A stretch of 64,000 nt of DNA, from NCBI RefSeq assembly GCF_026008515.1, contig NZ_BQYM01000012.1, positions 1-64,000 of the forward strand, written 5' to 3'. The first letter of the stretch is position 1. Each line of letters starts with the position of its first letter. The notes under the pieces are model-generated. The model made no database searches. It saw only the letters and a list, made by a program, of their open reading frames with translations, and was not told the DNA's origin. Both the position numbers and the translations under genes were made by a program. The stretch is from Hoyosella levis (GTDB lineage Bacteria > Actinomycetota > Actinomycetes > Mycobacteriales > Mycobacteriaceae). Shown piece by piece: positions 29,523-48,562 of this stretch.

Positions 29523-29554
29523 TACCTGCCCACCGGCTTGTAGCCTTGCCACCC

Positions 29555-30854: not shown

Positions 30855-30893
30855 TCCGCCCCGCAGAGCTTTATCCGCGGAGCCCCGCAGAAT

Positions 30894-32407: not shown

Positions 32408-33122
32408 GCCCCCGACAGTACGTCCACTCCCCCGCCGCCACCGACGGTGACACGACCCTGCCACCGACTCGTGCACGGACAGTTACCCAATCGTGCCCCT
32501 GGGCCCGGCCACGGCCCCGGTCAAGACATTCCCAGCTGTCCTATCCACATTCCTAGCCGCTGCCATGCAACACGCCGTGGCGCAGGCCGGATGCACGCAC
32601 AAGGCAACAGTCGTTGCTCGATACGGCTCAGTCTCCCAGTCAGCCGCCATGCCACCATCCGCGACGATGGGCGATTTCCATGCCAGATGGAAGTACAACC
32701 GACAGTCTCTAATGGCTACCTGTCCACAGGGCGGGTAGATGATCGGAAGAACCTACCTGGCGAAGGCCGGATGGAAGACGTCGTACCAGAGCGTAGGCAT
32801 GGCCATACCACAGTCCGTAGCCATGATCGGTAGGCAGCCCCTAGAAAAGGACATACGCAGGGCGGTCCAACGCTCGGAAAAACGATCAGCCTGGCCGCCA
32901 TGTCCATGCACTGCACGCAAGCCAGGGGAAGGGACGTGTGAACGATCTCCTGCAAGCACCGCACGAGGACCGTTCATAAGCCCATGCGCATGGCCCTAGT
33001 CATGGGTATGTGTATGGGCTTAGGCATGGACCTATCTATGGCATCAGGCTAGGCCATAGTCCATCCCGATCGCCAGGACGAGAAACCGATCATGGCGCGG
33101 GACGCGCACCCGACCAGCAGGA
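32408..33122. other. Non-coding region upstream of parA with palindromes (possible partition site)
   Basis: About 700 bp with no supportable gene. It is full of short ATGG/CCAT words, and its densest part (32971-33062) has TAAGCCCAT at 32977-32985 and its exact inverse ATGGGCTTA at 33014-33022, with partly matching inner sequence, making an imperfect palindrome of 46 bp. The position between parA and an integrase, with inverted repeats, suits a centromere-like (parS) site or a replication origin. I cannot tell which. Confidence 0.45.
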
Positions 33123-34163: not shown

Positions 34164-35146
34164 GATGGAACACGACCTCTGGCGAGCGACGGCGGGGGAG
34201 CGGGGCTATCGGGAGAGCCAGCCCGCAGGAAGCGAGGCCCTCCGGGGCCAGGCTAGCGGGGAGCACTGACATTCCAGCGACGCCGGTCTCCCGGCGAGCC
34301 CCGCCCCCCACACGAGCATCACGTTACGAAATAGTCGATGGGTGACGGTACGGGGGAGCGGGGGCATGCTCGCGGCGTCGAATGGACGATAAGCATCCCT
34401 TATCGACCATTGCTAGTGCCTGGGCCCCACTGCCGCGCTGTCGCCCCGCCTGGGGCAACCCTTGCCGGTCCCGCGTGATCGCTCCAGGACACCTCTCTCT
34501 TCTGCCCGATAAAAGACCATCGATTATCCCGGGTCACGCTGCGCCTATATGGACCAGGTTTTCCTGCGCCCCTTCCTGGGTGGTTTGCATCGAGAATATT
34601 AGCTCGAGATCAAAAAACCGAAGATTTTCGATGGGAAACTCGGCTATTGAGGTTTGACATCCAACCCTCGATGGCGAAATATGCCAAAATATACCGAGCG
34701 GTCTACTGGGCAATTAGGGCAAGGTATTTGGGTCAGGAAAATCGTGACGGTTTTGACCCGTCTATAGGGTTGGCAAATGGCCCTCGGAAGTCCCCCGTTT
34801 GGTCCGGTGAGTATTTCCTTCGGGAAATACTGATCCTAATATCCAGCAAATATGCGGATGATGGTCGCCCGTTGATAAATAGGCTCTGACCTGCGCATAG
34901 TGGCTTCATTGAGGTTTGCTTCGGTGGCCGGGGGCGGCGCTAGGCGAGCGCTCCGACGCCCCTGTTTTGGGCTACTGAAAAGATTCTTCAAAGAATGGCT
35001 TGCGTGCCCCGCTGGCTGCATGTACGGTATCTTTTATACCGCCCACGACGGAAAGTCTCGGGCACCCCCCTAATTCCTGCAGGGCTCGCCCTGTGCCCAT
35101 AACACGGCGACGCATAGGCGTCGCGGACGCGCAAAGGATCACACCC
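34164..35146. other. AT-rich non-coding segment with several perfect hairpins
   Basis: Nearly 1 kb without a convincing gene; 34560-34900 is strikingly AT-rich for this DNA. Inverted repeats: AATGGACGATAAG-CATCC-CTTATCGACCATT at 34381-34411 (one mismatch), GTATTTCC-TTCG-GGAAATAC at 34811-34830 (perfect, with a UUCG-type loop), GGTCA/TGACC flanking 34733-34758, and GCGACGC-ATAG-GCGTCGC at 35107-35124 just before the next gene. It may be a replication origin or encode a structured RNA. The 80-codon frame at 34647-34889 has no homology that I recognise. Confidence 0.5.
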
Positions 35147-35545
35147 ATGAAGATGACACCACTGGAGTTCGCCCAGGCCGCCCGCCAGCTCAAGGCGCGC
35201 GCGGGCACCCGGGCCTGGACCCTGGCCGACGCCGAGATCCTGCGGGAGGCGCTGCGCCAGGCCACGGGCCGACGAGTGAACCTCACCCAGTCCGCCCTCG
35301 CCGGACTGACACTGGCCCTCCGCCATGAGGGCATGGGCGTGTTCCCCCCGCTCGATCAGCTCGAGCGGGGACAGCTCACACGGATCTACCACGCCCGCAA
35401 CATCAAGGGAGACACCACCCTCGAGCGGCTCCTGCTCGTCCTGCTCCACCCCGGACCGGAGACCGATACCGAGCTGGGAGCCGATCTGCTCAAGCTCAAG
35501 GGCCAATGGGAATGGGGCCCCCGCCGCATCGACCCCGCAGCCTGA
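35147..35545 (+). CDS. Hypothetical protein
   Basis: 132 aa, mostly helical by composition, charged, with no signal peptide or membrane segment. Begins MKMTPLEFAQAARQLKARAG; contains GDTTLERLLLVLLHPG. I do not recognise a family. A hairpin at 35107-35124 lies in its leader. It is followed at 72 bp by the NYN-domain gene on the same strand, so the two are probably co-transcribed. Confidence 0.6.
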   Translation: MKMTPLEFAQAARQLKARAGTRAWTLADAEILREALRQATGRRVNLTQSALAGLTLALRHEGMGVFPPLDQLERGQLTRIYHARNIKGDTTLERLLLVLLHPGPETDTELGADLLKLKGQWEWGPRRIDPAA

Positions 35546-35617
35546 CCACCACCGACTCCTGCTCCCTGGGCCAATAAGGTCCCACGCCCAAGCCACCGCA
35601 CGGAAGGACCACCACGA

Positions 35618-36211
35618 ATGAGCACAACCACACCCCGCAAGGTCGGAGTCGTCTACGACTGGGAGAACACCATCCGCACCTCTACCGACGTCCGCCCCTA
35701 CGGCCACGACCACCGGTGCCGCCAGACCGACCCCCTGGCCCTGGCCCACATCCTCGTCGAGCGCGCCGGGGCAGGACTCGGGGTCCGCGCAGAGCTGGCA
35801 CAAGTCTTCATCGCCGCGGGCATCCATTCCCCCTTCCAGAACCGGCGCCAATGGCAGGCCCGGCACTACGAGGCACGCCGCTGGAACAGCCACAAGCTCA
35901 TCCACGCCGAGACCCGCGAGCTGGTCTACGGCGAGGGAACCTGCCGGGAGAGCGCGGCCATCGACCAACTTGTCGCCGACAAGACCCTCGAGCTCTCCCG
36001 CAGCAGCGAGCTCGACCTGCTGATCGTGTTCACCAACGACAGGGGCATCGCGCGCGCCACCCACGATGCGTTCCGCTTCGGGCGCTGCAAGATCAACGCC
36101 GCAACCTGGTCGGACAAGCCCAGCGTCCTGTTCCGCAAGGGCCTCTACGTCCACCACCTGACCGAGCAGGACTACCTGCGCAGCTCGACCCCGTCGCCCA
36201 TCGCGGCGTAG
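35618..36211 (+). CDS. NYN-domain (PIN-like) putative ribonuclease
   Basis: 197 aa. The start KVGVVYDWENTIRTS has the Asp and Asn of NYN domains (D-x-E-N); SSELDLLIVFTNDRGIARA supplies further conserved acidic residues of this PIN-like fold. NYN proteins are metal-dependent RNases in several processing and defence systems. The ATG follows GGAAGGACC. The preceding hypothetical gene may be its partner. Confidence 0.7.
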   Translation: MSTTTPRKVGVVYDWENTIRTSTDVRPYGHDHRCRQTDPLALAHILVERAGAGLGVRAELAQVFIAAGIHSPFQNRRQWQARHYEARRWNSHKLIHAETRELVYGEGTCRESAAIDQLVADKTLELSRSSELDLLIVFTNDRGIARATHDAFRFGRCKINAATWSDKPSVLFRKGLYVHHLTEQDYLRSSTPSPIAA

Positions 36212-36240
36212 CGCACCCCGGCACCACCACCGATGGCCCG

Positions 36241-37245
36241 CTAGCCCCTGGGGCCATCGGTGGTGGCCGCCACCACCGAACGGAGGAAGCGACGGCGCTG
36301 GCGCTCGCCGGCCTGCCCCGCCGCACCCATGGTGACCTCCAGCGTCCTGCGCAACGGATGCGGGGAACAAGCGATCGCATCATTGCGCCGAGCCAGCCGC
36401 CCGATCTCGTCCTCCGTGGGCGGGCGCGCTCCCTTCGACAGGTTGCACGGAGCGCACGCCAGCACGAGATTCCACACATGATTGAGGTCCGGGCCACGCC
36501 AGCTTCCCGTCCGCATCCACGCGAACGGGAACACGTGATCGACATGCACGTCCGGCCCCAGCGACGCGAAGTCCTTGCGGCAATAGAAGCACTCTCCATG
36601 CTGGAATCCCGCGATGCCCCCGCGCAACGAGGTCACCGCGACCCGCCGCGCGGGGGCGACCAACACGCCCTTCTCCGCATCGACTGCCATTCCGGAACCG
36701 ACCAGGCCACGGCCTATCCCCGCGTCGAACGAGGCCTCGACGATCGACCATCGTGAATCAAGCTCCTCGGCAAGCACTCCCGAGCCAGGGGCCAAGTCAC
36801 GCAGCTCCGGCGAGAACCGCACCACTCGCCGAGCGCCGCGCCCCTCGAGCTCGTAGAACGAATGAGCCACCCGTCCCAGATCACGGAGATTATGGAACTT
36901 CTGCATGACCATCCCCGGCATCGAGCTCATCGCGGCATCGACGAGAAGCTCGCTCGGTCCGCCCTGCTCGCGGGACGCATCACGCTCGCGCGCGAGGACT
37001 GACAGGAAGTCCTGCTCGCCGAGCTCCACCGCGGACGGAGCCTGGCTAGCGGGGGAGGGGCGCTCGAGCATCCTCGCCGAATACGCTGTGGCCAGGTTCC
37101 GCAACGACACGGCCTCGGCACCACTGCTGGCGAGGTCGAGCAGGGCGGCGCCCAGCGCGAACTTGTAGGTCCTGGTATTGACCCCCATCAGGATCGCCAG
37201 GCGCCAGGAAGTACGCGCAGTGGGCTCGTCGCGGTAGAACTGCAT
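36241..37245 (-). CDS. HNH-endonuclease domain protein
   Basis: 334 aa. The C-terminal third holds an HNH domain with zinc-binding cysteines: CFYCRKDF, VHVDHVFPF, LNHVWNLVLACAPCN. The N-terminal ~220 residues are unassigned. It is divergent from the MazG-like gene 30 bp away, with a shared promoter. Such HNH proteins of about 330 aa with N-terminal helical parts occur in actinobacterial accessory regions; a defence role is possible. ATG 37245 gives the start MQFYRDEPTART. Confidence 0.75.
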   Translation of the reverse strand: MQFYRDEPTARTSWRLAILMGVNTRTYKFALGAALLDLASSGAEAVSLRNLATAYSARMLERPSPASQAPSAVELGEQDFLSVLARERDASREQGGPSELLVDAAMSSMPGMVMQKFHNLRDLGRVAHSFYELEGRGARRVVRFSPELRDLAPGSGVLAEELDSRWSIVEASFDAGIGRGLVGSGMAVDAEKGVLVAPARRVAVTSLRGGIAGFQHGECFYCRKDFASLGPDVHVDHVFPFAWMRTGSWRGPDLNHVWNLVLACAPCNLSKGARPPTEDEIGRLARRNDAIACSPHPLRRTLEVTMGAAGQAGERQRRRFLRSVVAATTDGPRG

Positions 37246-37275
37246 GATCCAAGTATGCAAAGGAGCACCGACAGC

Positions 37276-37584
37276 ATGGGCAAGCTGGTCCGCGACAAGA
37301 TCCCCGCCATCATCCGAGCGAGTGGCGGAGATCCGGTCACCAGGGTGCTGGGCGCCCGCGAGTACGAGCAGGCACTACGCGACAAGCTCGTCGAGGAGAC
37401 CACCGAGCTGCGCGAAGCCGACACCGCGGACGATCGGATCGCCGAGGCCGCCGATGTCCTCGAGGTCCTCACAGCCCTCGTAGCCCTCGACGGCCACGAT
37501 CTCGCCGACATCGTCGAGGCAGCCCGGCACAAAGCCGCCCACCGCGGAGGATTCGTCGATCGCACATGGCTCGAGCAGGCATGA
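37276..37584 (+). CDS. MazG-like pyrophosphohydrolase
   Basis: 102 aa, begins MGKLVRDKIPAIIRASG; contains the KLVEETTELRE and EAADVLEVLTAL motifs of the all-alpha NTP pyrophosphohydrolase (MazG/HisE-like) fold, with acidic residues that bind Mg2+. Small stand-alone enzymes with the LVRDKIP start hydrolyse nucleoside triphosphates and occur on phages and plasmids. AGGAG ten bases upstream supports the ATG at 37276. It overlaps the next small frame by ATGA. Confidence 0.85.
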   Translation: MGKLVRDKIPAIIRASGGDPVTRVLGAREYEQALRDKLVEETTELREADTADDRIAEAADVLEVLTALVALDGHDLADIVEAARHKAAHRGGFVDRTWLEQA

Positions 37585-37781
37585 GCACCCCCGATGGCTC
37601 CTGGCGGCTCGGGGCCAGCGCGCCGACCAGCATGGAGTTCCACGACACCCGGCAAAGCAACTCGTGCGGCCTGGAGATCGCTCGAAAACCACGGCCCATG
37701 ACCGTAGTACTTGCGACTTGGCAGCCCCAAGCGGCTACGTGGCGCGGATGTGACAAGGTCTGGCTTGCTGCGATGCCTTGA
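37581..37781 (+). CDS. Possible small protein
   Basis: 66-codon frame starting MSTPDGSWRLGASAP, with its start overlapping the MazG-like stop (ATGA). No recognised domain. The overlap is the only evidence for translation; it could be a chance frame. Confidence 0.3.
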   Translation: MSTPDGSWRLGASAPTSMEFHDTRQSNSCGLEIARKPRPMTVVLATWQPQAATWRGCDKVWLAAMP

Positions 37782-37924
37782 TGGACACGTTGCCGGGGCT
37801 GCTCGCCAGTCGCGCTAGCGCAGAGGTAACGCGGAGCACACCTCCGGCGATATACGGCTACAATACGCGTTGATCTCGCCGCCAAGTCAGCGAGACTTGG
37901 GGCCGCAACAGGGGGAGCAAGTGC

Positions 37925-39037
37925 ATGCCGCGCGCATCAACCATGGTAGGTATCGGGGCCGCGGTCCTTCTTGCCGGCGGGCTCGTGATCACACCGACAG
38001 TCGAGGAAGAGCCCAGCAGCGCGGCGGTGGAAACCACGCAGTCCCAGACCACCACGCCAACGCCTGCACCGACCACTACCAGCGCACCGCCGGCGACCAC
38101 TGAGGCACGTGCCGATGATGCGCAAGCCAGCAGCCGCGACAGCGGCAACCGCATCCCCGATGATGCACCGGACGAGCTGCGCCGCGCCTACCAGCAGCTC
38201 GCCTCGCTCGAGGTCAAGGGCCGCGCCCCCAAGACCGGGTACGACCGCGACCTGTTCGGACCGTCCTGGACCGATGACGTGAGCGTCGAGGCCGGCCGCA
38301 ACGGGTGCGATACCCGCAACGACATCCTGCGCCGCGACCTCGACAACATCATCATCAAGTACAACAGCAATGGATGCGCCGTGCAGTCAGGCACCCTCGA
38401 CGGCCCCTACACCGGCCAGGCGATCTCCTTCGAGCGGGGCGGCGACACCACCGATGTGCACATCGACCACGTCGTAGCGCTGTCCGACGCATGGCAGAAG
38501 GGCGCCCAGCAATGGAGCCCGTCCACGCGGCAGGACTTCGCCAACGACCCGCGCAACCTCCTCGCTGTCGATGGCGGAGCGAACATGCAGAAATCCGACG
38601 GTGACGCCGCGACCTGGCTTCCCGCGAACAAGGCATTCCGCTGCACGATGGTCGCGATGCAGGTCAACGTGAAGGCCAACTATGGGCTGTGGGTGACCCA
38701 GGCCGAGCACGACGCGATCGAGCGGGTGCTCGACTCGTGCGAGGGGATCTCCTTCCCGGGACCGGTCCCCGGGATGATGCGCGACCGCGAGGCCGAGCCC
38801 CCAGTTCCCGTCCGCGCGCCAGAGCCGGAGCCGGTGTACACGCCGGAGCCGGAGCCTGTCTATACCCCAGCACCCGAGCCGGTGTACACGCCGCCGCCAG
38901 CCCCCGCGCCATCCAGCGTCTATTACGCGAACTGCAGCGCGGTCAAGGCGGCCGGAGCCGCTCCGATCCGTATCGGTGAACCCGGGTACAGCACCAAGCT
39001 CGACCGCGATGGCGACGGCATCGGCTGCGAGAACTAG
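37925..39037 (+). CDS. Secreted HNH nuclease with Excalibur domain
   Basis: 370 aa. An N-terminal signal or membrane anchor (GIGAAVLLAGGLVITP) is followed by a Thr/Pro/Ala-rich linker. The HNH (DUF1524/GmrSD C-terminal-like) domain has VHIDHVVALSDAWQKGA, DPRNLLAVDGGANMQK and NKAFRCTMVAMQ. Three PEPEPVYTP-type repeats form a wall-spanning linker, and the end is an Excalibur Ca-binding motif (YYANCSAVKAAG, then DRDGDGIGCEN). It is probably an exported nuclease acting at or outside the cell surface, on incoming DNA or in nutrition. A small membrane protein follows at 17 bp. Confidence 0.88.
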   Translation: MPRASTMVGIGAAVLLAGGLVITPTVEEEPSSAAVETTQSQTTTPTPAPTTTSAPPATTEARADDAQASSRDSGNRIPDDAPDELRRAYQQLASLEVKGRAPKTGYDRDLFGPSWTDDVSVEAGRNGCDTRNDILRRDLDNIIIKYNSNGCAVQSGTLDGPYTGQAISFERGGDTTDVHIDHVVALSDAWQKGAQQWSPSTRQDFANDPRNLLAVDGGANMQKSDGDAATWLPANKAFRCTMVAMQVNVKANYGLWVTQAEHDAIERVLDSCEGISFPGPVPGMMRDREAEPPVPVRAPEPEPVYTPEPEPVYTPAPEPVYTPPPAPAPSSVYYANCSAVKAAGAAPIRIGEPGYSTKLDRDGDGIGCEN

Positions 39038-39054
39038 AAAGAGAGGAAACCACC

Positions 39055-39297
39055 ATGATCGGAAAGCTCCTTGCCGCGCTGTCCTGGACCGGATTGGTCT
39101 TCTTCGGCCTGGCGACTTTGGGCGGAGTGGTTGCGTGGCTGGGCGAGGGTGACCCGGCAGGACCTGGGATGACGATGGTAATGCTGTCGTTCACGATGCT
39201 GTTCGGGTTCTTCCTGCTGCGCCGTCGCGAGAACAGGGCCAAGGCGATTGCCAGCACCGCGCAAGCGCCGGTTCACCCAGGCAGTGATCGATACTGA
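39055..39297 (+). CDS. Small two-helix membrane protein
   Basis: 80 aa with two hydrophobic helices (LLAALSWTGLVFFGLATLGG and MTMVMLSFTMLFGFFLL) and a basic tail. The ribosome site AGAGAGGAAACC is good and it begins 17 bp after the secreted nuclease gene, so they are co-transcribed. It may anchor, export or protect against the nuclease; no family recognised. The 39298-39485 gap shows nothing else. Confidence 0.6.
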   Translation: MIGKLLAALSWTGLVFFGLATLGGVVAWLGEGDPAGPGMTMVMLSFTMLFGFFLLRRRENRAKAIASTAQAPVHPGSDRY

Positions 39298-39485
39298 ACC
39301 ACGAGGCGAAACGACCAGGGCAGAGTCTCCTTCTGGGTATTCTCTGCCGACCGACCTGAACCCAGGTCTCGCCAGGCCCTCGGTCCGGCATCGGCCGCCT
39401 GCCGTAGGCAATGCTGGTAGCCGGGCACCGGCCTAGGATCTAAACAACAGCAACGCAGAGACTGCGAGACCCGAGAAGGTAGGCC

Positions 39486-39974
39486 ATGACCAACACGGCA
39501 ACCACTGGGAACGGCGTCTGGATGTTCGTCAACAACCCGCACGTCACGACGGGATGGCCGGATCCACACGGCATCAGCGACTCCTACGACATCGTGACTG
39601 CGCCGGATACGGAAAGCTATTCGGTTGGACGGGGCATCAAGCTGATCGGCCCCGGCGATATCGGACTGGTGTACCGGGCTGACCGAGGCGCGCAGATGAG
39701 GAAGAAGGGCAAGATCGTTGCGGTTGCCCGCATAACCTCAACGCCACAGGAAGCCAGCGACGGAAACACCTACGTCGAGTGGGAGCTCTGTAGGCTCCCA
39801 CCGGAGGCATGGATCGATGAACAGCAAATGCTGGCCTCTGGGAACTGGACCTATGATGTGCGCCCATTTGGTGGAAGCCACCAAGCGCCAGCAAGCAGGG
39901 TCAGGCCCGATCAGTGGGAGTGGCTGAAGAGAACCTTGCCGAGCGCGGTCGTCGATTGGTTGAAGATGCCGTAG
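39486..39974 (+). CDS. Hypothetical protein, possibly EVE/PUA-like
   Basis: 162 aa. The pattern WMFVNNPHVTTGW, then SYSVGRGIKLIGPGDIGLVYRADRG and KGKIVAVARITSTPQEA recalls EVE domains (PUA-like fold), which read modified bases, but the similarity is weak. C-terminal VRPDQWEWLKRTLP is also seen in stand-alone proteins of this kind. It lies in the accessory region upstream of the reverse transcriptase, on the same strand. Confidence 0.45.
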   Translation: MTNTATTGNGVWMFVNNPHVTTGWPDPHGISDSYDIVTAPDTESYSVGRGIKLIGPGDIGLVYRADRGAQMRKKGKIVAVARITSTPQEASDGNTYVEWELCRLPPEAWIDEQQMLASGNWTYDVRPFGGSHQAPASRVRPDQWEWLKRTLPSAVVDWLKMP

Positions 39975-40152
39975 CCTGCCGGTCCACTGCATGGTCGGTG
40001 CCACCGCAGCGGCAACACGCGGCTACTTCGCTGCCGTCGCGCCTCGGCTCAATGCCAGGCAAGGCCGCTCCCGACACTGAGACACTCCTTGCGCGAGCAA
40101 CAGATCGCTGGTGGCATGAGGTGATCCACAAATATAGCCGATAACATATATT

Positions 40153-40347
40153 ATGTCATATACAGTGTGGATGCCGGAGGTCGACCGATGGCCAGCACGC
40201 CGCGATGGGTTGCGCGGTGCGTATCAAGGAGCCGACGCAGAGCGAGCATTTTGGCGGGGAGCCTGTCGACAGCCTGACGATCATGCGCTGGAAGTTGTGG
40301 TGTGGCTGTCCCGATCGGCCTACGGGGACATGATGTTTGACCGATGA
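40153..40347 (+). CDS. Possible small protein upstream of the reverse transcriptase
   Basis: 64-codon frame, MSYTVWMPEVDRWPARR to SAYGDMMFDR, preceded by an AT-rich segment with a short palindrome ACATA-TAT-TATGT (40144-40156) that could be a promoter. No family recognised and no good ribosome site, so it may be a chance frame. The rest of 39975-40400 holds nothing else I can support. Confidence 0.25.
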   Translation: MSYTVWMPEVDRWPARRDGLRGAYQGADAERAFWRGACRQPDDHALEVVVWLSRSAYGDMMFDR

Positions 40348-40399
40348 CTCCGCGAAACCGTCGTTCGTGAACCAACGTAGAGCGCGGGCTTCTCGAGAG

Positions 40400-40580
40400 T
40401 AGAATCTAGAGTAGGTTCCCAGAGGGACTAGGCATCGAGCCGATTTGGAGCAGATCACGGTTGATCACCACCTGCCCCAGTGGGGCCGTCTTCGCAAGTT
40501 GACTGCCCGCGTGAAGCACATTTTGCCTGGACTCGAAGCCGGAGTTGGGGCTGGGCGCACCGCTCAGCCCCAACTTTTTT
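40400..40580 (+). ncRNA. Candidate structured RNA preceding the reverse transcriptase
   Basis: The ~180 bp directly upstream of the RT contain short perfect stem-loops, GATCA-CGGT-TGATC (40453-40466) and GCCCC-AGT-GGGGC (40474-40486), and end in an intrinsic-terminator hairpin with six T (40543-40580). A TAGAAT at about 40401 could be a -10 box. Retrons and several defence RTs carry their template RNA in this place. The boundaries are guesses, and the region can also be read as an open frame continuous with the RT. Confidence 0.4.
40543..40580 (+). terminator. Strong intrinsic terminator-like hairpin just before the RT start
   Basis: Perfect 11-bp stem AGTTGGGGCTG / CAGCCCCAACT with a short loop, followed by TTTTTT ending two bases before the ATG at 40583. 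It would end a short upstream transcript and limit RT expression to read-through. Confidence 0.75.
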
Positions 40581-40582
40581 CG

Positions 40583-42139
40583 ATGACGAAAGAGATTCTT
40601 GTGTGGTGGGAGCTTGATCAGCGGGTCCGCGAGGCGTCGATCCGCCTCATCGAAGAGCATGAGACGTACGCGAAGTCCGTCTATGATGAGAACACTCGGC
40701 GCCGTAGGCGCAGCTCTGGAACCCCCGCGATGCTCCCAGTCAGGCGCCCAGAGACGTGGAATCTCGATCCTGGTTTCAACCCCTATATCGTCCGATCCCG
40801 GCATCGGCGCATCGCCCATGCGATTGCAGGGCGGCTAAGGGACCGAAGCTACTCCCCCAGGCCTCCGGCTGGATTCAGCGTCCCCAAACCGTCCGGTGGT
40901 GAGCGGGTCGTGAGTACATTCCAGATCGCAGACGAAGTGATCTCCAACCGTCTGTTTCGATCTTTGATGAGGAAGAACCTCGGACGGCTGAGCGCACGGG
41001 CGTACGCCTACCGGCCTGATCTCGGTCCACACGATGCTATTTCCTACGTCTCTACTGAATTTAAACGGGAGCACCGTTTGTTCGTTGCGGAGTACGACTT
41101 TAGCAAGTTTTTCGACACGGTTGACCATGGATTTCTACTAGAAACGCTCGATACGATGGGAATCGTGAGAACCCCGCTTGAGCAGCATATAATCGAACGC
41201 TTCCTTGAAGCCCCTGAAGCATTGGTCGAAACAGCAGGCAACCCCGTCTCCGGGCCACCGCGAAGGCAGGGTATTCCACAAGGAACATCTGTGAGTCTTT
41301 TCCTCGCCAATGTTGCTGCATCTGAACTTGACCGTGCCCTAGAGAGAATTGGTGTAGGTTTCGTCCGATATGCGGATGATACCTTGATATGGGGCACGGA
41401 CTACGGGCGCGTTAGTGAGGCTGCCTCCATTCTTTACGAAGCATCAAGCCGAATCGGCTCTCCGATAAACTCGGGGAAGAGCCTGGGTATAAGGCTGCTA
41501 TCCAAGGAGGAGACCGTTCATGTCGAGATGTCCTCGACAAAGAGTGTTGACTACCTGGGTCATTGCATCGGATTACGCAAAGTGCGCATGAAAGATTCTT
41601 CGGTCGATCGCATTAAAAAAAGGATCGGCGATCTGATATTTACCAATCTAATTCTTGAGCCACTTAACGGAACGCAGCAAGAAAGTCGCCTTAGTGATGT
41701 TGATCGAGACTATGTAACTTTAATCTGGCAGCTCCGTCGTTACCTCTACGGTCCGCTAACTGAGAAGGATGTTCGCCGGTTTCAGGCAGGCGCGATTCCG
41801 CCGATGGCCTTCGAAGGGGTCATGTCGTTCTTTCCTCTGATGGACGATGATGACAGTCTCCGCGAGCTTGATGAGTGGATCGCGGCACGCCTCTGGCTCG
41901 CGATGAGAAAGCGAGCTCGCCTACTCCGTGCGACTGGTTTGGCGGTCCCGCTCCCTCATGCGATTCCGAAGCATCAACTGATCGGCTTCACCTCAAAGTC
42001 CTCGCGCACCGGCGACACTGTGGACTTGCGGATGCCTAGTCTTCGCAAGATCGCAAGGGTCATTAGACTGGCAGTCTCCACTCACGGTCTTGGTGTTGTC
42101 TCGGGCCAAGCGCCCCTCTATCTCTACGGCGAGGACTAG
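40583..42139 (+). CDS. Reverse transcriptase of unassigned class (possible defence RT)
   Basis: 518-aa RNA-directed DNA polymerase. Catalytic-domain motifs: fingers with FSVPKPSGGERVVST (~98-112), YDFSKFFDTVDH (171-182, first catalytic Asp), GIPQGTSVSLFLANV (230-244), the active-site YADD (263-266), NSGKSLGIRLL, and VDYLGHCIGL. The C-terminal ~150 residues include a helical thumb-like LDEWIAARLWLAMRKRARLL reminiscent of the maturase thumb, but no maturase, HNH or intron structure follows. It lacks the VTG motif of retron RTs and the altered motif of diversity-generating RTs. The gene is AT-richer than its surroundings, a sign of transfer. ATG 40583 directly follows a terminator hairpin; a TTG-started frame from 40445 is the alternative. 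A phage-defence role is inferred from class and context. Confidence 0.88.
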   Translation: MTKEILVWWELDQRVREASIRLIEEHETYAKSVYDENTRRRRRSSGTPAMLPVRRPETWNLDPGFNPYIVRSRHRRIAHAIAGRLRDRSYSPRPPAGFSVPKPSGGERVVSTFQIADEVISNRLFRSLMRKNLGRLSARAYAYRPDLGPHDAISYVSTEFKREHRLFVAEYDFSKFFDTVDHGFLLETLDTMGIVRTPLEQHIIERFLEAPEALVETAGNPVSGPPRRQGIPQGTSVSLFLANVAASELDRALERIGVGFVRYADDTLIWGTDYGRVSEAASILYEASSRIGSPINSGKSLGIRLLSKEETVHVEMSSTKSVDYLGHCIGLRKVRMKDSSVDRIKKRIGDLIFTNLILEPLNGTQQESRLSDVDRDYVTLIWQLRRYLYGPLTEKDVRRFQAGAIPPMAFEGVMSFFPLMDDDDSLRELDEWIAARLWLAMRKRARLLRATGLAVPLPHAIPKHQLIGFTSKSSRTGDTVDLRMPSLRKIARVIRLAVSTHGLGVVSGQAPLYLYGED

Positions 42140-42411
42140 CCTCTCCCACTCGCATGAGGCGAGCAAGCCCAATACCGCTGCCACGCGGACGAGGTCCAGC
42201 GACGGTGGGCGGAAATCCTGAGGCGGTGTGGCGGGCGGGCCCGCTCGCCGCGCTCGGTCGCGGCGAGCCAGGCGCGGACGAAGTCCACGCGGAAGGCCAG
42301 GGGGAACTTGCGGGCGCCGCTGGCGGTGCAGCCGGGCGGGGCAAGTAGTGCCTCATAGAGTGGTGTCGAGCGGTGACCGAGATCGTCGATTGCCACGAAC
42401 AGCGCGGTCAC
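42136..42411 (-). pseudogene. Possible fragment of a transposase helix-turn-helix gene
   Basis: The minus-strand frame contains GARKFPLAFRVDFVRAW and ATERGERAR, resembling the N-terminal helix-turn-helix part of IS transposases; a later LRIS..RRWTS pattern appears shifted. No complete gene and no ends. Weak evidence. Confidence 0.25.
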
Positions 42412-42417
42412 CGTGTG

Positions 42418-42540
42418 GTCCGTCGGCTATCCCAAGTCCTGGCCGACGCGTCTGCCGATCTGACGCGTCAGCTTCTGCAAGCATTGGTCAACGCTCTGTT
42501 GTCCGCCGGCGCGGTCCCCGGCAGGCGATGTGGCGAGGGA
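42418..42540 (+). pseudogene. Remnant of an IS256-family transposase N-terminus
   Basis: VLADASADLTRQLLQALVNALLSAGA is the typical start of IS256-family (Mutator-like) transposases (consensus-like ADLxRxLLxxxxxALMSAEAD). After it the frame degenerates (VPGRRCGEG in place of AVCGAxYGE) and the GNAT gene begins. Only this scrap remains, marking a former insertion sequence between the RT and the acetyltransferases. Confidence 0.5.
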
Positions 42541-42555
42541 AAAGGGAGTGTTCAC

Positions 42556-42969
42556 ATGATCCGTGCTCTCGACGAGGACGAGATGGTGGGTCCCGAGCTC
42601 GCCCACCTGGTATGGCTATCCACTGCGGCCAATGATGAGAAGCTGGGCAGGATCCTGCGCGAAGTGTTGCCGGGCCTCCTGCTCATCGGTGTGTTTGAGC
42701 ACCGCCGTCTCGTGGCCTTCGTGGCGCTGGACGCCGGTTCCGAGATGATCGTGATCAGGTATATCGCGGTCGATGAGAAATGGCAGGGGCGCGGGCATGG
42801 GCGCTCGCTCGTCAGCGCTGCCCGCGAGATGGTGCCTGGTCGAGGCCTCTGCGCGGAGACCGACGACGACGCTGTGGGCTTCTACCGGCGCATCGGGTTC
42901 ACCGTGACAGAAATGGCACGTGATCCGCGGTGGCCCGAGCGCCAGCGCTACGCTTGCGCGCTAGCGTAA
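42556..42969 (+). CDS. GNAT-family N-acetyltransferase
   Basis: 137 aa. Acetyl-CoA binding motif EKWQGRGHGRSLVSAA, preceded by VIRYIAVDE, and the C-terminal CAETDDDAVGFYRRIGFTV typical of GNAT enzymes. ATG 42556 has GGGAG nine bases upstream; longer in-frame starts run into the IS remnant. The substrate is unknown. The stop is followed by a GC-rich inverted repeat (42971-42992). Confidence 0.88.
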   Translation: MIRALDEDEMVGPELAHLVWLSTAANDEKLGRILREVLPGLLLIGVFEHRRLVAFVALDAGSEMIVIRYIAVDEKWQGRGHGRSLVSAAREMVPGRGLCAETDDDAVGFYRRIGFTVTEMARDPRWPERQRYACALA

Positions 42970-43163
42970 TCAGCGCGGGGCTGGCCCCGCTGGCGAATCT
43001 GGTTCGAGGGCGACACACTAACGGCATCACCCGATCATGAGATCGATTCGACACGTCACGATCGCCCCGCATCGGTCGGTGAGGTAGTGCGCGCACTGCT
43101 GGCACCGCAGCGCTTCGGGTCGCTACAACCGCGACGCCACGAGAGGCGGACTACGCTCGATCC

Positions 43164-43700
43164 GTGACCATCCCTGGCGACGAGGCCGATGCGTGCCATT
43201 CGACGGCGGAGCCATTCTCCCCGCCCGGCGAGCGTTCACGGAGGCCTCCGCTAGCGATCACCGGCGCGCCCGAGCCCATGGACGTGGCGAGGCTGCGCTG
43301 GCAGTGGGCCCGGGAGTCCGACCCGGGCATCGGGCTGTGGTCGCACGACCATGGCTTCATCGCGTCGGTTGAGCAATGGGCCAGCCAGGCGCATCGCACG
43401 GTCTGGACCGCGGGGTTCGCGGGGCATGCTGTCGGGATGGTGTGCATGACCGAGCATTCCCGCATGCCCAGCCCGCGGGCCGCAGCGGCGGGTCGCTGGG
43501 GCTATCTCGGGCACCTCTATGTCGATCCCGGCCACCGGGGGCACGGCATCGCGACCACGCTCGTCGAGCATGTCCTGCATGCTGCTGACCGCCGCGGCTA
43601 TAGCAAGGTCATCCTTTCTCCCACCGAGCGCTCCATCGCTGTCTATGAGCGGTGTGGCTTCTCCCGTCGCAACGATCTGATGATTCGCCGCCGCGCGTGA
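43164..43700 (+). CDS. GNAT-family N-acetyltransferase
   Basis: 178 aa with a ~35-residue unconserved N-terminus. The core contains LGHLYVDPGHRGHGIATTLVEHVL (acetyl-CoA loop RGHGIA) and SPTERSIAVYERCGFSRRNDLM. It is similar to acetyltransferases that modify amino acids or small antibiotics; the substrate is unknown. GTG start at 43164. It is not closely related to the preceding GNAT. Confidence 0.88.
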   Translation: MTIPGDEADACHSTAEPFSPPGERSRRPPLAITGAPEPMDVARLRWQWARESDPGIGLWSHDHGFIASVEQWASQAHRTVWTAGFAGHAVGMVCMTEHSRMPSPRAAAAGRWGYLGHLYVDPGHRGHGIATTLVEHVLHAADRRGYSKVILSPTERSIAVYERCGFSRRNDLMIRRRA

Positions 43701-43797
43701 TGGCCGAGCAGGGCTGTGCGGGGCGTCCGCCGAACCGGAGCGCGAGGGCTGGTCGTCATAACAGGCGCAAGGCGTCCTCGAGCATGCGGTGCCCTAC

Positions 43798-44448
43798 TCA
43801 CTGCGATGTTTCCTTCGTGGCGCTGGTGAGCAGCCGGTAATGCGGCTTCAACGCTGCGGCTGCCTCGGTATAGCGCTGCGTGGTTGCGATGGATTCGTCG
43901 CCGAGCATCCTGGCCAGGGCGTGGATGGTGATGTCAGGGCGGTTCGCCATGGTCGTGGTGAAGGTATGGCGCAACGTGTGAGTGAGTGCCCCGATGGATC
44001 GCTCGGGTTCTATCCCGGCACGCTTGTAGGCTCGCTGCACGCGGTGCTGAAGGGTTCCCTGGATCAGCCGCAGCTCGTCACGGTTGATGAACAGCGGGTC
44101 GCGCGAGTGGAACCCGTTCCACGGCGGGGAATCGCCGGGGGCGCGCCTGCTCGCGCCGAACCGGGCCGCACGGGTGGAGAGGCAGTCCGCGAGGATCGCG
44201 GTGAGCGGTGGGGATGCGTGCGCGATGCGGTCCTTGCCGCGCACGTGGATGCGCAGCTCGGTGGGCGCATCGGGGTGGGGTTGCAGATCCCCGATGTTGA
44301 GGCCGCGCAGCAATGCGAGAGCGGTGGTGGCGAAATCCCGCTCCGGCCAATCGTCGGATCTCCCCGAGGCAGGGGAGCTGGTGGCGAGGCTCTCGATGAG
44401 CCGCTGGACCGCATCACAAAAATGGGCGCGGACGGCAACACCGCCCAC
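43798..44448 (-). pseudogene. N-terminally truncated tyrosine recombinase
   Basis: 216 residues cover only the catalytic domain: Arg in LLRGLNIGDL, LTHTLRHTFTTTMA, and LGDESIATTQRYTEA with the nucleophile Tyr. In the last block the usual His after Gly is Asp (GDES), which is tolerated in some families. The core-binding domain is missing and its 5' end runs directly into the edge of the polyketide cluster (17 bp from its last gene), so it is likely a broken integrase at the junction. Confidence 0.7.
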
Positions 44449-44464
44449 GCCCCATCAACCCGGC

Positions 44465-45304
44465 TCACCTGGTCGGTGGCCCACACGACGCCAGCACGCG
44501 GTCCAGCACCGCCTCGTGGTGGGCGCGAGCGGCGAGCCCGAGGCTGACGTTGTGCCCCGCACCGGCCAGGAACGAGTCCTCGACGAGCGCTTGTGGGAAG
44601 CGCCTGCGGAGCTGCTCCCGGTCATATGGCGTACAGGCCCACCAGCCCTCGTGCTCGGCGAAGCTGAAGTGCACGGGACAGGTGACCCCGGGTGCCACGT
44701 CTGCCAGCGTCCGGTGCCAGCGGGGCACGTCGGCGCGCTCCGCCGCCGGGAACGGCTGGGTGATGTTGCGGGCGGCGTGCAGGAAGGTCCCGCTCGGGTA
44801 GTTGCGCACCGGACCCCAGTGCAGGTGCATCGCGCTGCGGGCGTTGTGGTGGGTAACCATCTCGACGGGTACGGCGTAGCGCTCGCCGACGCCACAGGTC
44901 TCCAGACGGCGCACACCGAGGTCAGGGTGCCGTGCCGCCAGGGCAAGTGCGACCTTCCCTCCGAAGGAGTGCCCATAGACCGCCAAGCCGGCCGAGGCCC
45001 TACCAAGCAACCCGTGCAGCGCCTCGGCCACCACGTCCGACTGGCCAAGGACGCCGAGCCCGACAGGGAAGCAGGCCCGGGAGGCGCCGTAGCCCGGGCG
45101 GTCCAGCGCCAGGACGCTCAATCCGCGCCGCGCAGCCGCGTCGAGCAAAGACCGGTCGTGCCCCGCGGCGTCGAAGTAGGCCGCGCTCATGGCGGCCCCG
45201 TGTAGCGCAACCACCATCCCCCGGGACGGGCCGTCCGGCTCCGCGAGCAGGCCGGAGAGGACCCCGCCCCGTACTCCGAGCAGCACCTCGCGTCGTGGCT
45301 TCAT
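44465..45304 (-). CDS. Alpha/beta hydrolase of the polyketide cluster
   Basis: 279 aa. Oxyanion region VVALHGAAMS, ALDRPGYGAS, nucleophile elbow YGHSFGGKVAL and a C-terminal His in AGAGHNVSLG form the expected triad. It overlaps the carboxyltransferase gene by ATGA and is the last gene of the operon. It may hydrolyse a lactone, ester or thioester intermediate of the aromatic polyketide; the step is not evident. Confidence 0.85.
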   Translation of the reverse strand: MKPRREVLLGVRGGVLSGLLAEPDGPSRGMVVALHGAAMSAAYFDAAGHDRSLLDAAARRGLSVLALDRPGYGASRACFPVGLGVLGQSDVVAEALHGLLGRASAGLAVYGHSFGGKVALALAARHPDLGVRRLETCGVGERYAVPVEMVTHHNARSAMHLHWGPVRNYPSGTFLHAARNITQPFPAAERADVPRWHRTLADVAPGVTCPVHFSFAEHEGWWACTPYDREQLRRRFPQALVEDSFLAGAGHNVSLGLAARAHHEAVLDRVLASCGPPTR

Positions 45305-46896
45305 CGCGGTAGGTTCACGTGCTTGCGGTTGCGGCGCTCGCCCTTCGCAGCCAGGACCTCGAACGCCGCGGCGACGGTGGCCCGGGTCTCCACCGGGTCG
45401 ATCACGTCGTCGACGAGACCGCGCTCGGCGGCGTAGTAAGGATGCATCAGCTCGTCGCGGAAGGCTGCGGCCCGCGCACGCTCCTCCGCGGCGGGATTCG
45501 CGCAGCCCGCGATCTCGCGCCGGTAGATAACCCGCGCCGCCGCCTCCGCTCCCATCACGGCGATCTCGTTGCTCGGCCAGGCGAAGCAGAAGTCGGCGCC
45601 GATGGAGCGCGAGTCCATGACGATGTACGCCCCGCCGTACGCCTTGCGGAGGACGAGCGAGACCCGCGGCACCGTCGCCTGGCAGTAGGCGCTCAGTAGC
45701 TTGGCACCGTGCCGGATGATCCCGCCGTGCTCCTGATCGACCCCGGGCATGAAGCCGGGCACGTCGACGAGAGTGAGCAGGGGGATGTTGAAGCTGTCGC
45801 AGAACTGCACAAAGCCCGCCCCCTTCTGACTGGACTCGAGGTCCAGTACACCGGCGCGGTGGATCGGCTGGTTCGCCACGATGCCGACGGTGCGGCCACC
45901 GATCCGCGCGAAGCAGGTGACCAGATTCCGGGACCAACCGGGATGGATCTCGAGGTACTCCCCGTCGTCCACGATCTCCTCGATCACGGCGAGCACATCG
46001 TATGCCGTGCTCGCCTCCGCGGGCACGATGTCGAGCAGTCGGTGGTTGGGTCGGTCGACCGGGTCGGTGCTGGCGTAGCACGGCGGCTGCTCGCTGCTGT
46101 TCTGCGGCAAGAAACCAAGCAGGTAGCGGGCATCCTCCAGGCACGCCTCCTCCGACTCGTAGGACCGGTGGGCCACCCCGGACATGGTCGCGTGCACCCG
46201 CGCTCCGCCGAGGCTCTCGACGTCGACCTTCTCGCCAGTCACCGTGCCGACCACGTCCGGACCGGTGACGAACATCTGGGACGTGCTCTCGACCATGAAG
46301 ACGAAGTCCGTCAGGGCCGGGGAGTACGCCGCGCCACCCGCACAGGGACCGAGCATCAGCGAAAGCTGCGGGACCCGCCCGGAGGCCTCGGTGTTGCGGA
46401 CGAAGATGCCGCCGTAGCCCGCGAGCGCCGTCACGCCCTCCTGGATGCGGGCACCCGCCCCGTCATTGAGTGCGATCAGGGGCGCCCCGGCCTGGATCGC
46501 GAGGTCCATCACCCGGTGGATCTTCTGCGCGTGCGCCTCGCCCAACGAGCCGCCGAAGAGACGGAAGTCGTGGCCATAGACGAACACCGAACGGCCGTGC
46601 ACCTTGCCGTAGCCCGTTACCACGCCGTCGGTGGCGGGACGGCGGCCCGCCAGGGATGCCGACTCTGCACGGTGCTGACGGAACATCTCCAACTCGTGGA
46701 AGGTGCCTGGGTCGAGCAGGAGCTCAAGCCGCTCGCGGACGGTGAGCTTACCGCGCTCGTGCTGGCGCTCCGACGACGGATCGTCGATGCAGCGCACGTG
46801 CGCACGGCGACGGTGGAGATCGCCGACCCGATCCGCGATCGAGTCGGGCGTGCAGGCGAAGGGCTCCGCCACGGGGGTCTGGATCAACGCGGTCAT
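45301..46896 (-). CDS. Acyl-CoA carboxylase carboxyltransferase (beta) subunit
   Basis: 531 aa. A tandem crotonase-fold carboxyltransferase of the AccD/PccB type, with GGSLGEAHAQKIHRVMDLA, GARIQEGV, LGPCAGGAAYSPALTDF and a C-terminal-domain FLPGVDQEHGG-like block (PGFMPGVDQEHGGIIRHGAK). It moves the carboxyl group from biotin to acetyl-CoA to make malonyl-CoA. With the biotin carboxylase/BCCP subunit at 57547 it gives the cluster its own extender-unit supply, as JadJ-type enzymes do in jadomycin biosynthesis. GAGGAG precedes ATG 46896. Confidence 0.93.
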   Translation of the reverse strand: MTALIQTPVAEPFACTPDSIADRVGDLHRRRAHVRCIDDPSSERQHERGKLTVRERLELLLDPGTFHELEMFRQHRAESASLAGRRPATDGVVTGYGKVHGRSVFVYGHDFRLFGGSLGEAHAQKIHRVMDLAIQAGAPLIALNDGAGARIQEGVTALAGYGGIFVRNTEASGRVPQLSLMLGPCAGGAAYSPALTDFVFMVESTSQMFVTGPDVVGTVTGEKVDVESLGGARVHATMSGVAHRSYESEEACLEDARYLLGFLPQNSSEQPPCYASTDPVDRPNHRLLDIVPAEASTAYDVLAVIEEIVDDGEYLEIHPGWSRNLVTCFARIGGRTVGIVANQPIHRAGVLDLESSQKGAGFVQFCDSFNIPLLTLVDVPGFMPGVDQEHGGIIRHGAKLLSAYCQATVPRVSLVLRKAYGGAYIVMDSRSIGADFCFAWPSNEIAVMGAEAAARVIYRREIAGCANPAAEERARAAAFRDELMHPYYAAERGLVDDVIDPVETRATVAAAFEVLAAKGERRNRKHVNLPR

Positions 46897-47252
46897 CAGT
46901 TCTCCTCGGGGGTGGGGTGAGTGAGCTGCTCGGTCGACGACGGCGGGAGCCGCATGGAAAGGAGGCCGGGCGACGAGGTCGAGTCCGGTGACCACGTCGA
47001 GGTGCGGCCGTGCGCGCGCAGGGCACGCCTCTTGTTCTCGTGCAGACGTGAGTCGAGCAGGCCGGCGTGGGAGGACGGCAGACCCCGCTGGACGCCGGTG
47101 CCTACGCGGCGCGAGGACACCGCGACGGCACTGGTGGCCAGCGTCTCGCGCAGGCTCGTCTTGTCGAGGAGCGCGCCATCGACAAGGGCATAGCCCACCT
47201 TGAGCGTCTCGCCATAGGTCCAGCACAGCGCAGCGGCCAGGAAGATGCTCAT
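46896..47252 (-). CDS. Small hypothetical protein in polyketide operon
   Basis: 118-codon frame beginning MSIFLAAALCWTYGETLKVG, whose start overlaps the MFS gene stop (ATGA) and whose stop touches the carboxyltransferase start. The first ~50 residues look protein-like; the Ser/Arg/Pro-rich second half does not. Possibly a small pathway protein or a small carboxylase subunit, but no family is recognisable. Confidence 0.4.
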   Translation of the reverse strand: MSIFLAAALCWTYGETLKVGYALVDGALLDKTSLRETLATSAVAVSSRRVGTGVQRGLPSSHAGLLDSRLHENKRRALRAHGRTSTWSPDSTSSPGLLSMRLPPSSTEQLTHPTPEEN

Positions 47253-48556
47253 CGCGAACCTCCGTCGGGAGTGATGAGGGCGACCGCCGCAGCCACGAGA
47301 AGCGCGCCTCCGGCGGCGGCGAGAGACGGAGACAAGGTACGGGCGAGCGCGGTGCCGGCCAGACCGAGCGGGACGGCCAGGGCCGCGCCGGACTGGACTA
47401 GGACCTGATAGCCGCCCAAGGCCCCAGTGCGCAGGCCGGGCGGGATCGCGGCGACGGCGCGGAGGTTCAACGGCACGAAGCCGAACACGAACGCAAGACC
47501 GACGAGCGTCGACAACCCGGCCACGACCGGAACCGACCAAGGGGCAAGCAGCGCGCCGAGAAGGTACGCCGTACCCGCACAGGCTGCGGACGCCGCGACC
47601 AGCAGGGCCAGTGGGACCCGGCGGACCAACACCCCCGTCAGTGGGACGGCGAGCGCCATCCCGAGTCCGACCGGCGCAGCCGCCAGAGCAGCGACCGGCA
47701 CGGGCCCGGTCACGTACAGCTGTTGCTGCGCGGCCGCGAAGAAGAGCAGGAATGAGCCGTTGAACAGGCCTGCGGTCGCCGCGTTCGTGGCGAAGGATCG
47801 GGAAGCGGCGGCCGGGAGCGCGGCTCGCAGGGGCGCTCGGACCAGCACGACGACGGCACCCGCGGCGAGCAGCCCCCCGCCGACCCGCACTGCGGCTGGG
47901 ACGGGAGCGAGAGCCGCCACGATCCCTACGGCCACGGGTATGACGACCGCGACGGCGATGCCGGACGACTGACCGGGCGCGGAGGGGTTGGCGGGCATCC
48001 AGCGCGCGGCGGCCGCAGCGAGGCCGAGTGCCACCGGAGCGGGCCAGCACGCGGCAAGCTGCCAGGACGCGCCCAGCAGCGGAGCAGTGACGAGCAGCCC
48101 AGCGACGAAGCCGCCGCCACCGACCAGGCTGTAGAGCCGGGTCGCGCGCTCCCGATCGGCCGGGTTGGCGAAGGCCTGAGCGAGGACCGCGTTGCCGAGC
48201 GGGGTGGTGAGCCCGGCGCTGAGACCCTTTGCCAGGCGGGCGACGACGAGTGCGGCGGCACCTCCGGCCAGGGCCGAAAGCACGGTCGCGACGGCGAAGA
48301 CGACCAGCGCGACGACGAGGACGGTGCGTGTCCCGAAACGCTCGGCCACCGGCGCCGCGACCGGGATGCCCGCGACGAAACCGAGTGGGAAGGCTGCGGC
48401 GACTAGCGCGATGTCGCCCGGGCCCAGTCCTACGTCTGCGGTGATCGCTGGGAGCAGAACGAACAACGAGGAGACCTCGACCGTGTCGATCAGGAGGTTT
48501 CCCGCGACGACGGCGAGGACGCCCCAAGGAGCCGCGCGCAGCCCGTTTGTGGTCAT
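47249..48556 (-). CDS. MFS transporter (probable product exporter)
   Basis: 435 aa with about 12 to 14 hydrophobic helices. Starts WGVLAVVAGNLLIDTVEVSS; the loop 2-3 signature appears as APVAERFGTRTVL. Inside a biosynthetic operon it most likely exports the product and confers self-resistance. It lies 6 bp after the oxygenase-reductase gene. Confidence 0.88.
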   Translation of the reverse strand: MTTNGLRAAPWGVLAVVAGNLLIDTVEVSSLFVLLPAITADVGLGPGDIALVAAAFPLGFVAGIPVAAPVAERFGTRTVLVVALVVFAVATVLSALAGGAAALVVARLAKGLSAGLTTPLGNAVLAQAFANPADRERATRLYSLVGGGGFVAGLLVTAPLLGASWQLAACWPAPVALGLAAAAARWMPANPSAPGQSSGIAVAVVIPVAVGIVAALAPVPAAVRVGGGLLAAGAVVVLVRAPLRAALPAAASRSFATNAATAGLFNGSFLLFFAAAQQQLYVTGPVPVAALAAAPVGLGMALAVPLTGVLVRRVPLALLVAASAACAGTAYLLGALLAPWSVPVVAGLSTLVGLAFVFGFVPLNLRAVAAIPPGLRTGALGGYQVLVQSGAALAVPLGLAGTALARTLSPSLAAAGGALLVAAAVALITPDGGSR

Positions 48557-48562
48557 CGATGC

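What the first reader, a model, noticed from the sequence alone, without database searches (positions are those of the whole stretch)
40583..42139. Unclassified reverse transcriptase in a plasmid-like accessory region
The 518-aa protein has all RT catalytic motifs (DFSKFFD, QGTSVS, YADD) but lacks the marks of retrons (VTG), diversity-generating RTs and group II introns (no intron boundaries, no HNH). The gene is AT-richer than neighbours and lies among nuclease, MazG-like and PIN/NYN genes. It may be a new or poorly sampled member of the unknown-group/defence RTs.
Basis: partly seen in the sequence, partly recalled or inferred. Interest (0 to 1): 0.8.

Follow-up and report, generated by a model that had tools for sequence, protein, structure and literature searches.

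The report
Actinobacterial DRT9 anti-phage reverse transcriptase
This gene is an actinobacterial member of DRT9, a known bacterial anti-virus system in which a reverse transcriptase probably copies a short run of U's in its partner RNA over and over into long poly-A DNA; the family is known, but this branch carries a divergent partner RNA and its host lacks the nuclease reported to keep the system quiet.

Summary
In detail: an intact RT gene lies at 40583-42139 (+), more likely starting at GTG 40601 (512 aa). It is not unclassified: it matches PADLOC Drt9 (UG28) at E 1.1e-175, 583 bits against 104 for the next model. Its AlphaFold model matches six solved DRT9 chains over full length (TM 0.82-0.87; at most 0.59 for the other 44 listed). 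It groups with 18 Actinomycetota DRT9 rows, apart from the branch of the tested PsaDRT9. A covariance model from ten other actinobacterial loci finds it at E 2.2e-19. Lock residues and the priming tyrosine pair (Y513/Y515) are kept. Best reading: RNA-templated, protein-primed poly-dA synthesis for abortive infection; the chemistry is inferred from tested homologs. New details: my model of 39 other-branch ncRNAs misses all 24 actinobacterial and deep-branch sources; six of 24 such loci have only U3; ExoI, the published silencer, was not found here or in 37 of 50 DRT9 hosts. New member of a known kind.

The parts
40400..40405 (+). possible -10 element TAGAAT, just upstream of the ncRNA
   Evidence: Same hexamer at the same place in L007 and L008; the sigma-70 scan called no promoter there. 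Inferred.
40409..40582 (+). DRT9-type ncRNA (predicted); 3' end about 40575-40582
   Evidence: Model R3, built without the window, L007 or L008, finds 40409-40543 at E 2.2e-19; fold z-score -3.77; 86-92% identity to L008 in the three bins of 40401-40550 against 44-68% in the bins upstream; to L007 76-86% against 56-72%.
40414..40429 (+). SL1 hairpin (GGUUCC...GGGACU)
   Evidence: Five of its pairs (40415-40428) form in 13 of 13 actinobacterial rows, four of the five with two-sided changes; in the fold of the window alone.
40431..40442 (+). 5' strand of the long closing helix (GGCAUCGAGCCG)
   Evidence: Pairs with 40528-40540 in the fold of the window alone; outer GGC/GCC kept in 12 of 13 rows; the inner part counted across rows is poorly supported (50.8% of cells paired).
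40445..40480 (+). stem-loop with the UGAUC loop
   Evidence: weaker across rows (68.2 and 71.4% of cells paired in its two helices).
40483..40508 (+). stem-loop shortly 5' of the template
   Evidence: Six of seven pairs show two-sided changes; 74.7% of cells paired.
40521..40524 (+). UUUU, predicted template for poly-dA, in an unpaired stretch
   Evidence: Last three U's invariant in 13 actinobacterial rows; a U-run at this place in all 24 deep/actinobacterial loci read; unpaired in the fold.
40528..40540 (+). 3' strand of the closing helix (UGGACUCGAAGCC)
40541..40580 (+). terminal hairpin (SL6-like) and T6 run, probably a terminator
   Evidence: 17-pair stem 40541-40577 in the fold, its 3' strand running into the T6 run 40575-40580. 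The terminator scan did not list it.
40601..42139 (+). DRT9 (UG28) reverse transcriptase, likely GTG start, 512 aa (518 aa if ATG 40583 is used)
   Evidence: PADLOC Drt9 1.1e-175; sequence of PDB 9ioa 6.9e-93; fold match; tree.
41369..41380 (+). YADD catalytic motif (residues 263-266 of P0001)
   Evidence: Invariant in the 53 rows of A5; codons checked.
42119..42127 (+). C-terminal Y-L-Y (Y513, Y515), predicted protein primers
   Evidence: Same place at the C-terminus as the SenDRT9 Y496/Y498 pair described in PMC12483538 and PMC12489045; alignments.

Best explanation
A two-component DRT9 (UG28) anti-phage system. A promoter upstream of 40409 makes an ncRNA that scaffolds the RT and holds its UUUU loop at the active site. 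The RT uses a C-terminal tyrosine (Y513 or Y515) as primer and copies the U4 again and again, slipping and realigning, into long poly-dA bound to itself. In uninfected cells the product is removed or not made; during infection it builds up and the infected cell stops, which protects the population. Shown here: gene, family, ncRNA homology within the actinobacterial branch and its conserved structure, the U-run, catalytic, lock and tyrosine residues, purifying selection. Inferred from tested homologs: poly-dA chemistry, oligomerisation, phage triggering, abortive infection. Unknown: what silences the system and what triggers it in a host without ExoI.
For: RT: PADLOC Drt9 583 bits against 104 for the next model; 68 of 74 aligned proteins match Drt9 at 1e-60, the six outgroup RTs reach only 3.4e-47 or weaker; full-length match to DRT9 sequence and structures; tree. 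K102, R108, R144 and Y29 match K98, R104, R140 and Y25 of E. coli DRT9. Y-L-Y tail. ncRNA: held-out model hit 2.2e-19; covariation score not reached by any of 500 shuffles; fold z -3.77; U-run. dN 0.135 and dS 2.2 (saturated) to L008. Mechanism in tested members: PMC12483538 (sections read), PMC12489045 (results section).
Against: I found no expression, poly-dA or phage data for this branch. The ncRNA is not found by my model of 39 known-branch ncRNAs. The model's C-terminal tail is of low confidence (pLDDT 34 in the last block), so tyrosine placement is not shown. The silencer ExoI was not found in the genome, so regulation must differ. Some relatives lack the tyrosine pair: L013, L020, L021 and L022 have one tyrosine in the last 12 residues, L023 and L074 none there.
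Confidence: 0.85

Rival explanations
1. The RT copies a longer stretch of the loop and makes a mixed-sequence tandem repeat, as DRT10 (UG17) does, not pure poly-dA.
For: UG17/DRT10 is the second-best UG-class model (91 bits); PMC12632851 (passages) describes templated, protein-primed repeats there. Some actinobacterial template runs are only U3. The window loop reads GC-ACAUUUU-GC, a possible short repeat.
Against: Drt9 scores 583 bits. The U's are the conserved part of the loop. No SLATT gene was found near the window RT, whereas DRT10 requires one (PMC12632851, passages).
Confidence: 0.06
2. A DRT9 relic: the system is horizontally acquired and no longer active in this host.
For: GC far below the window's; in three congeners no match covers the RT stretch; no ExoI found in the host.
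Against: Intact ORF, invariant catalytic residues, dN 0.135 against dS 2.2 to L008, ncRNA kept.
Confidence: 0.05
3. The RT serves a non-defence role (for example plasmid maintenance).
For: The contig looks plasmid-like; no phage data.
Against: Tested members of the family defend against phage (PMC12483538, PMC12489045).
Confidence: 0.04
4. A group II intron or other mobile-element RT.
For: TIGR04416 group II RT partial match at 121.6 bits.
Against: Below its cut-off of 300; no Rfam family in the window; fold and tree place it in DRT9.
Confidence: 0.005

Closest known systems
SenDRT9 / E. coli DRT9 (PDB 9nlv, 9nlx, 9ioa, 9vku, 9vma)
   Same: RT fold over full length (TM 0.82-0.87), catalytic, lock and N-terminal helix residues, C-terminal tyrosine pair, upstream ncRNA with stem-loops, U-rich loop and terminal hairpin.
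   Different: 32-35% identity; insertion of about 16 residues near residues 214-230; ncRNA sequence not reached by my model of the known branch; host without detected ExoI.
PsaDRT9 (Photobacterium sanctipauli, L030)
   Same: Tested anti-phage member of that species (PMC12483538); same order ncRNA-RT; 35% identity. That L030 is the tested copy rests on the species name.
   Different: Other branch of the tree; host has ExoI.
Humibacter albus DRT9-like locus (L008) and Actinomycetaceae MAG (L007)
   Same: 80% and 74% protein identity; same ncRNA with the same U4 context GCACAUUUUGCC.
   Different: No shared flanking genes found within about 4 kb.
DRT10 (UG17)
   Same: ncRNA-templated, protein-primed repeat synthesis.
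   Different: Needs SLATT, serine-primed, tandem-repeat product (PMC12632851, passages).

Membership tests
DRT9 (UG28) | RT scores best and far above others with the Drt9 model | tested here: met
   583 bits, next 104
DRT9 (UG28) | YADD active site and the K98/R104/R140 lock residues of E. coli DRT9 | tested here: met
   YADD 263-266, K102, R108, R144. K102, R108 and R144 are also invariant with the outgroup RTs, so they do not discriminate.
DRT9 (UG28) | N-terminal helix extension with Y25 contacting the ncRNA | tested here: met
   Helix 2-43 in the model; Y29 aligns with Y25
DRT9 (UG28) | C-terminal priming tyrosine pair | tested here: met
   Y513, Y515; priming itself not tested
DRT9 (UG28) | Upstream ncRNA with a conserved U-rich template in a loop | tested here: met
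   expression not tested
DRT9 (UG28) | ncRNA recognised by a model of known-branch DRT9 ncRNAs | tested here: not met
   R1: 0 of 24 sources with the window and its branch, while 7 of 9 non-training loci are found. Not a published defining feature; my own model, 11 pairs; it shows divergence.
DRT9 (UG28) | Full-length fold of DRT9 RT | tested here: met
   TM 0.82-0.87 to six DRT9 chains; at most 0.59 for the other 44 listed
DRT9 (UG28) | Phylogenetic placement with DRT9 | tested here: met
   68 rows, the window among them, on one side of a branch against six outgroup RTs; DRT2 and DRT10 sequences were not in the tree
DRT9 (UG28) | Poly-dA synthesis, hexamer, phage defence | not testable with these tools
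   Needs the bench
DRT10 (UG17) | Adjacent SLATT protein | tested here: not met
   None found in window 30001-50000 with two SLATT queries
Group II intron RT | Equivalog score above cut-off and intron RNA | tested here: not met
   121.6 of 300 bits; Rfam none
Retron | Retron RT model above cut-off | tested here: not met
   retron_St85 36.4 of 235 bits, Retron_TIR 25.1 of 600

The most novel reading that the evidence does not exclude
The Actinomycetota DRT9s form a distinct branch with its own ncRNA class (a covariance model of the known branch does not reach it), in which three uridines can suffice as template, and whose poly-dA is kept in check by something other than ExoI, in cells where the AT-DNA-binding protein Lsr2 takes the place of H-NS/StpA as the likely sink.
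Probability: 0.4. Interest if true: 0.6.

Novelty: new member of a known kind. Interest (0 to 1): 0.38.

Why it matters
The published model of DRT9 control rests on ExoI, yet in 37 of 50 DRT9-bearing genomes that I searched no ExoI domain (PF08411) was found, among them all 23 of the actinobacterial and deep branch; the 13 that have it are, by their names, all gammaproteobacterial. That makes the question of how poly-dA is silenced directly testable outside the gammaproteobacteria. Natural U3 templates in three lineages bear on the question, left open in PMC12483538, of how many uridines are needed; there deletion of one uridine abolished SenDRT9 defence.

Tried and rejected
Group II, retron and DRT10 readings were tested and rejected; DGR only through the fold ranking (8ub7 at TM 0.45). 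A model from the known branch (R1) was tried as the fairest test of ncRNA homology and failed on the window; I then built models from the actinobacterial branch (R2 includes the window; R3 leaves out the window, L007 and L008). Among held-out loci R2 reached only two near-identical Acidimicrobiia ncRNAs, weakly (L017, L018, E 0.0036); its other matches (L043 at 0.053 away from its ncRNA site, and E 0.69 or worse) look like chance, and no known-branch ncRNA was found. R3 gave L017 and L018 only E 0.96. In the R1 control two weak minus-strand matches in L039 (E 0.043 and 0.9) also appeared. Viral contigs: the first scan gave one RT locus (L004, 29% over residues 78-300), which fits a general RT model better than Drt9; the second gave none. 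No phage record had a place covering 80% of the query; two plasmid records did (L005, L006, capped at 5000 records). The terminator scan did not list the terminal hairpin. The structure given for A6 was drawn by me after seeing the sequences and agrees with the fold of the window alone, run afterwards, though an earlier fold of a longer stretch paired the 5' part otherwise; its helix 3 is weak across rows. Template positions were picked with patterns written by eye. Of the 42 rows in the second count there, L026 belongs to the deep branch and L035 was hit at a wrong place; without them 32 are U4 and 8 are U5; L039 was not located. The genome-contig scan kept 80 of 109 confirmed loci. L043 and L058 have internal stops, L025 and L073 are fragments, and L038, L047 and others were not in every set; L013/L002, L016/L003 and L068/L005 are duplicates. 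The tree is a quick search, and L006 has a long branch. dS was not computable for L007, L012 and L013. One paper search was badly framed and says nothing.

Full report
OBSERVATION. The ORF at 40583-42139 is real and intact, with all RT motifs. The likelier start is GTG 40601 (512 aa), from comparison with L007, L008 and L013 and from the T6 run that ends just before ATG 40583; this is inference. GC is 55.3% in the gene against 68.6% in the window.

FAMILY. PADLOC Drt9 matches residues 8-510 at 1.1e-175 (583 bits); the next model has 104 bits and UG17 91. The only sequence match in the PDB over nearly the full length is the 499-aa DRT9 RT (9ioa and five more entries, E 6.9e-93). An AlphaFold2 model from 53 window and locus sequences has mean pLDDT 91.4; the last nine residues are below 50. 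Foldseek ranks six DRT9 chains first (TM to query 0.82-0.87); the other 44 rows listed have at most 0.59. 68 of 74 aligned proteins match Drt9 at 1e-60; the six outgroup RTs do not (best 3.4e-47), while the divergent plasmid protein L006 does (1e-145). In a 74-row tree the window falls with L008 (Humibacter) and L007 (SH-aLRT 100) inside a 19-row clade of 18 Actinomycetota rows and the window (98); the 44-row branch with PsaDRT9 (L030) is separate (99). The tree holds no DRT2 or DRT10 sequences.

RESIDUES. By the alignment and the invariant columns, K102, R108 and R144 match the lock residues K98, R104 and R140, and Y29 matches Y25, as named in PMC12489045 (results section). The three lock residues are invariant in the outgroups too. 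The C-terminus reads LYLYGED, with Y513 and Y515 where SenDRT9 has Y496 and Y498 (PMC12483538). Not all relatives keep the pair.

THE MISSED PARTNER RNA. The 174 nt before the gene fold alone into SL1, a long closing helix, two inner stem-loops, an open stretch with UUUU, and a 17-pair terminal hairpin that runs into the T6 run (-76.2 kcal/mol, z -3.77; 1 of 200 shuffles as low). Identity to L008 is 86, 92 and 88% in the three 50-base bins of 40401-40550, and 44-68% in the bins upstream; to L007 86, 76 and 82% against 56-72%. On 13 actinobacterial sequences the named structure gives 76.3% paired cells (shuffled mean 66.1, 0 of 500 as high) and a covariation score of 0.346 (shuffled 0.177, 0 of 500; best slid version 0.173); 'further pair types' is the weakest measure (30 of 500). 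SL1 pairs in 100% of cells, the inner closing helix in 50.8%. Model R3, from ten other actinobacterial loci with RNAalifold's own structure, finds 40409-40543 at E 2.2e-19, L007 at 7.4e-19 and L008 at 3.8e-17; the next window match has E 1.3. The RNA occurs once in the genome by R2, which was trained with it.

TWO RNA BRANCHES. Model R1, from 39 ncRNAs of the other branch, finds 7 of 9 non-training loci (missing L038, whose locus is cut short, and L006), but 0 of 24 sources of the actinobacterial and deep branch at E up to 10. R1 is a weak model (11 pairs), so this shows divergence, not absence of kinship. The shared plan (SL1, closing helix just 3' of it, U-run a few bases before the 3' strand, terminal hairpin, then the RT) is seen by eye and by fold in both.

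TEMPLATE. All 24 actinobacterial and deep loci read have a U-run: 15 U4, 6 U3, 3 U5. The U3 loci are L011 and L012 (mycobacterial), L017-L019 (near-identical Acidimicrobiia) and L020 (Arachnia), so three lineages on the tree (positions chosen with patterns written by eye). In 40 usable rows of the other branch, 32 are U4 and 8 U5. PMC12483538 reports that deleting one uridine abolished SenDRT9 defence and leaves the needed number open.

HOST AND CONTROL. PMC12483538 proposes that ExoI (sbcB) removes poly-dA in uninfected cells, and reports that H-NS and StpA come down with the active RT. In the window's genome (completeness 100) no ExoI C-terminal domain PF08411 was found; the E. coli control rings. 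Many are drafts or MAGs, some are near-identical, and other exonucleases could do the work. The genome encodes Lsr2 (7.0e-28), the actinobacterial counterpart of H-NS (recalled). That Lsr2 would be the sink is a guess.

SURROUNDINGS. No gene of the window is shared with the flanks (about 4 kb) of 17 related loci. SLATT proteins occur beside L002/L013, L003/L016, L020 and L006, not beside the window RT; only two SLATT queries were used, so remote ones may be missed. The contig of 128,397 bp carries a ParA-like ATPase, integrases, Tn3 transposases and an oxidoreductase; the 31.0-44.5 kb stretch has no long match in three congeners except the nuclease gene. Plasmid or island is not settled.

PRINT. 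In the held library, DRT9 with Actinobacteria, Actinomycetota or Mycobacterium gives no paper. DRT9 with reverse transcriptase gives eight; I read named sections of two, passages of three more (PMC12632851, PMC13213688, PMC13275509), and saw three only as listings. PMC8934634 was seen in passages on UG28. Supplementary tables were not read, so actinobacterial members may be listed there.

VERDICT. A well-supported member of a known and striking family, with a divergent partner RNA and a host that does not fit the published control model. That last point is the part worth following.

Noticed in passing
window 268-3285 (-) and 18892-21900 (+): Two Tn3-family transposase genes, 82% identical in DNA, about 16 kb apart.
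   Followed up: partly
window 37925-39034 (+): Putative nuclease with GmrSD_C and Excalibur domains; 86% DNA match in one congener and kin on Rhodococcus and Gordonia plasmids.
   Followed up: partly
window 43798-44448 (-): Tyrosine-recombinase gene matching only the C-terminal part of Xer models; probably a fragment.
   Followed up: no
window 60622-61198: 577-bp stretch repeated at 100% identity at contig position 65646-66222.
   Followed up: no
window 1-77: First 77 bases recur at 100% identity on contigs C2 and C3: likely an element end where the assembly broke.
   Followed up: no
L035 350-490: DRT9 ncRNA of a Urechidicola MAG appears by eye to have a U8 run before CGUG, the longest seen.
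   Followed up: no
L003 626-1270, L020 676-1392, L002 636-1262: SLATT gene directly upstream of the ncRNA in one actinobacterial subclade, with the ncRNA between SLATT and RT.
   Followed up: partly
L043 and L058: DRT9 genes with an internal stop codon: decayed or sequencing errors.
   Followed up: no
window 29546-30166 (+): PIN_3-domain protein; no partner looked for.
   Followed up: no
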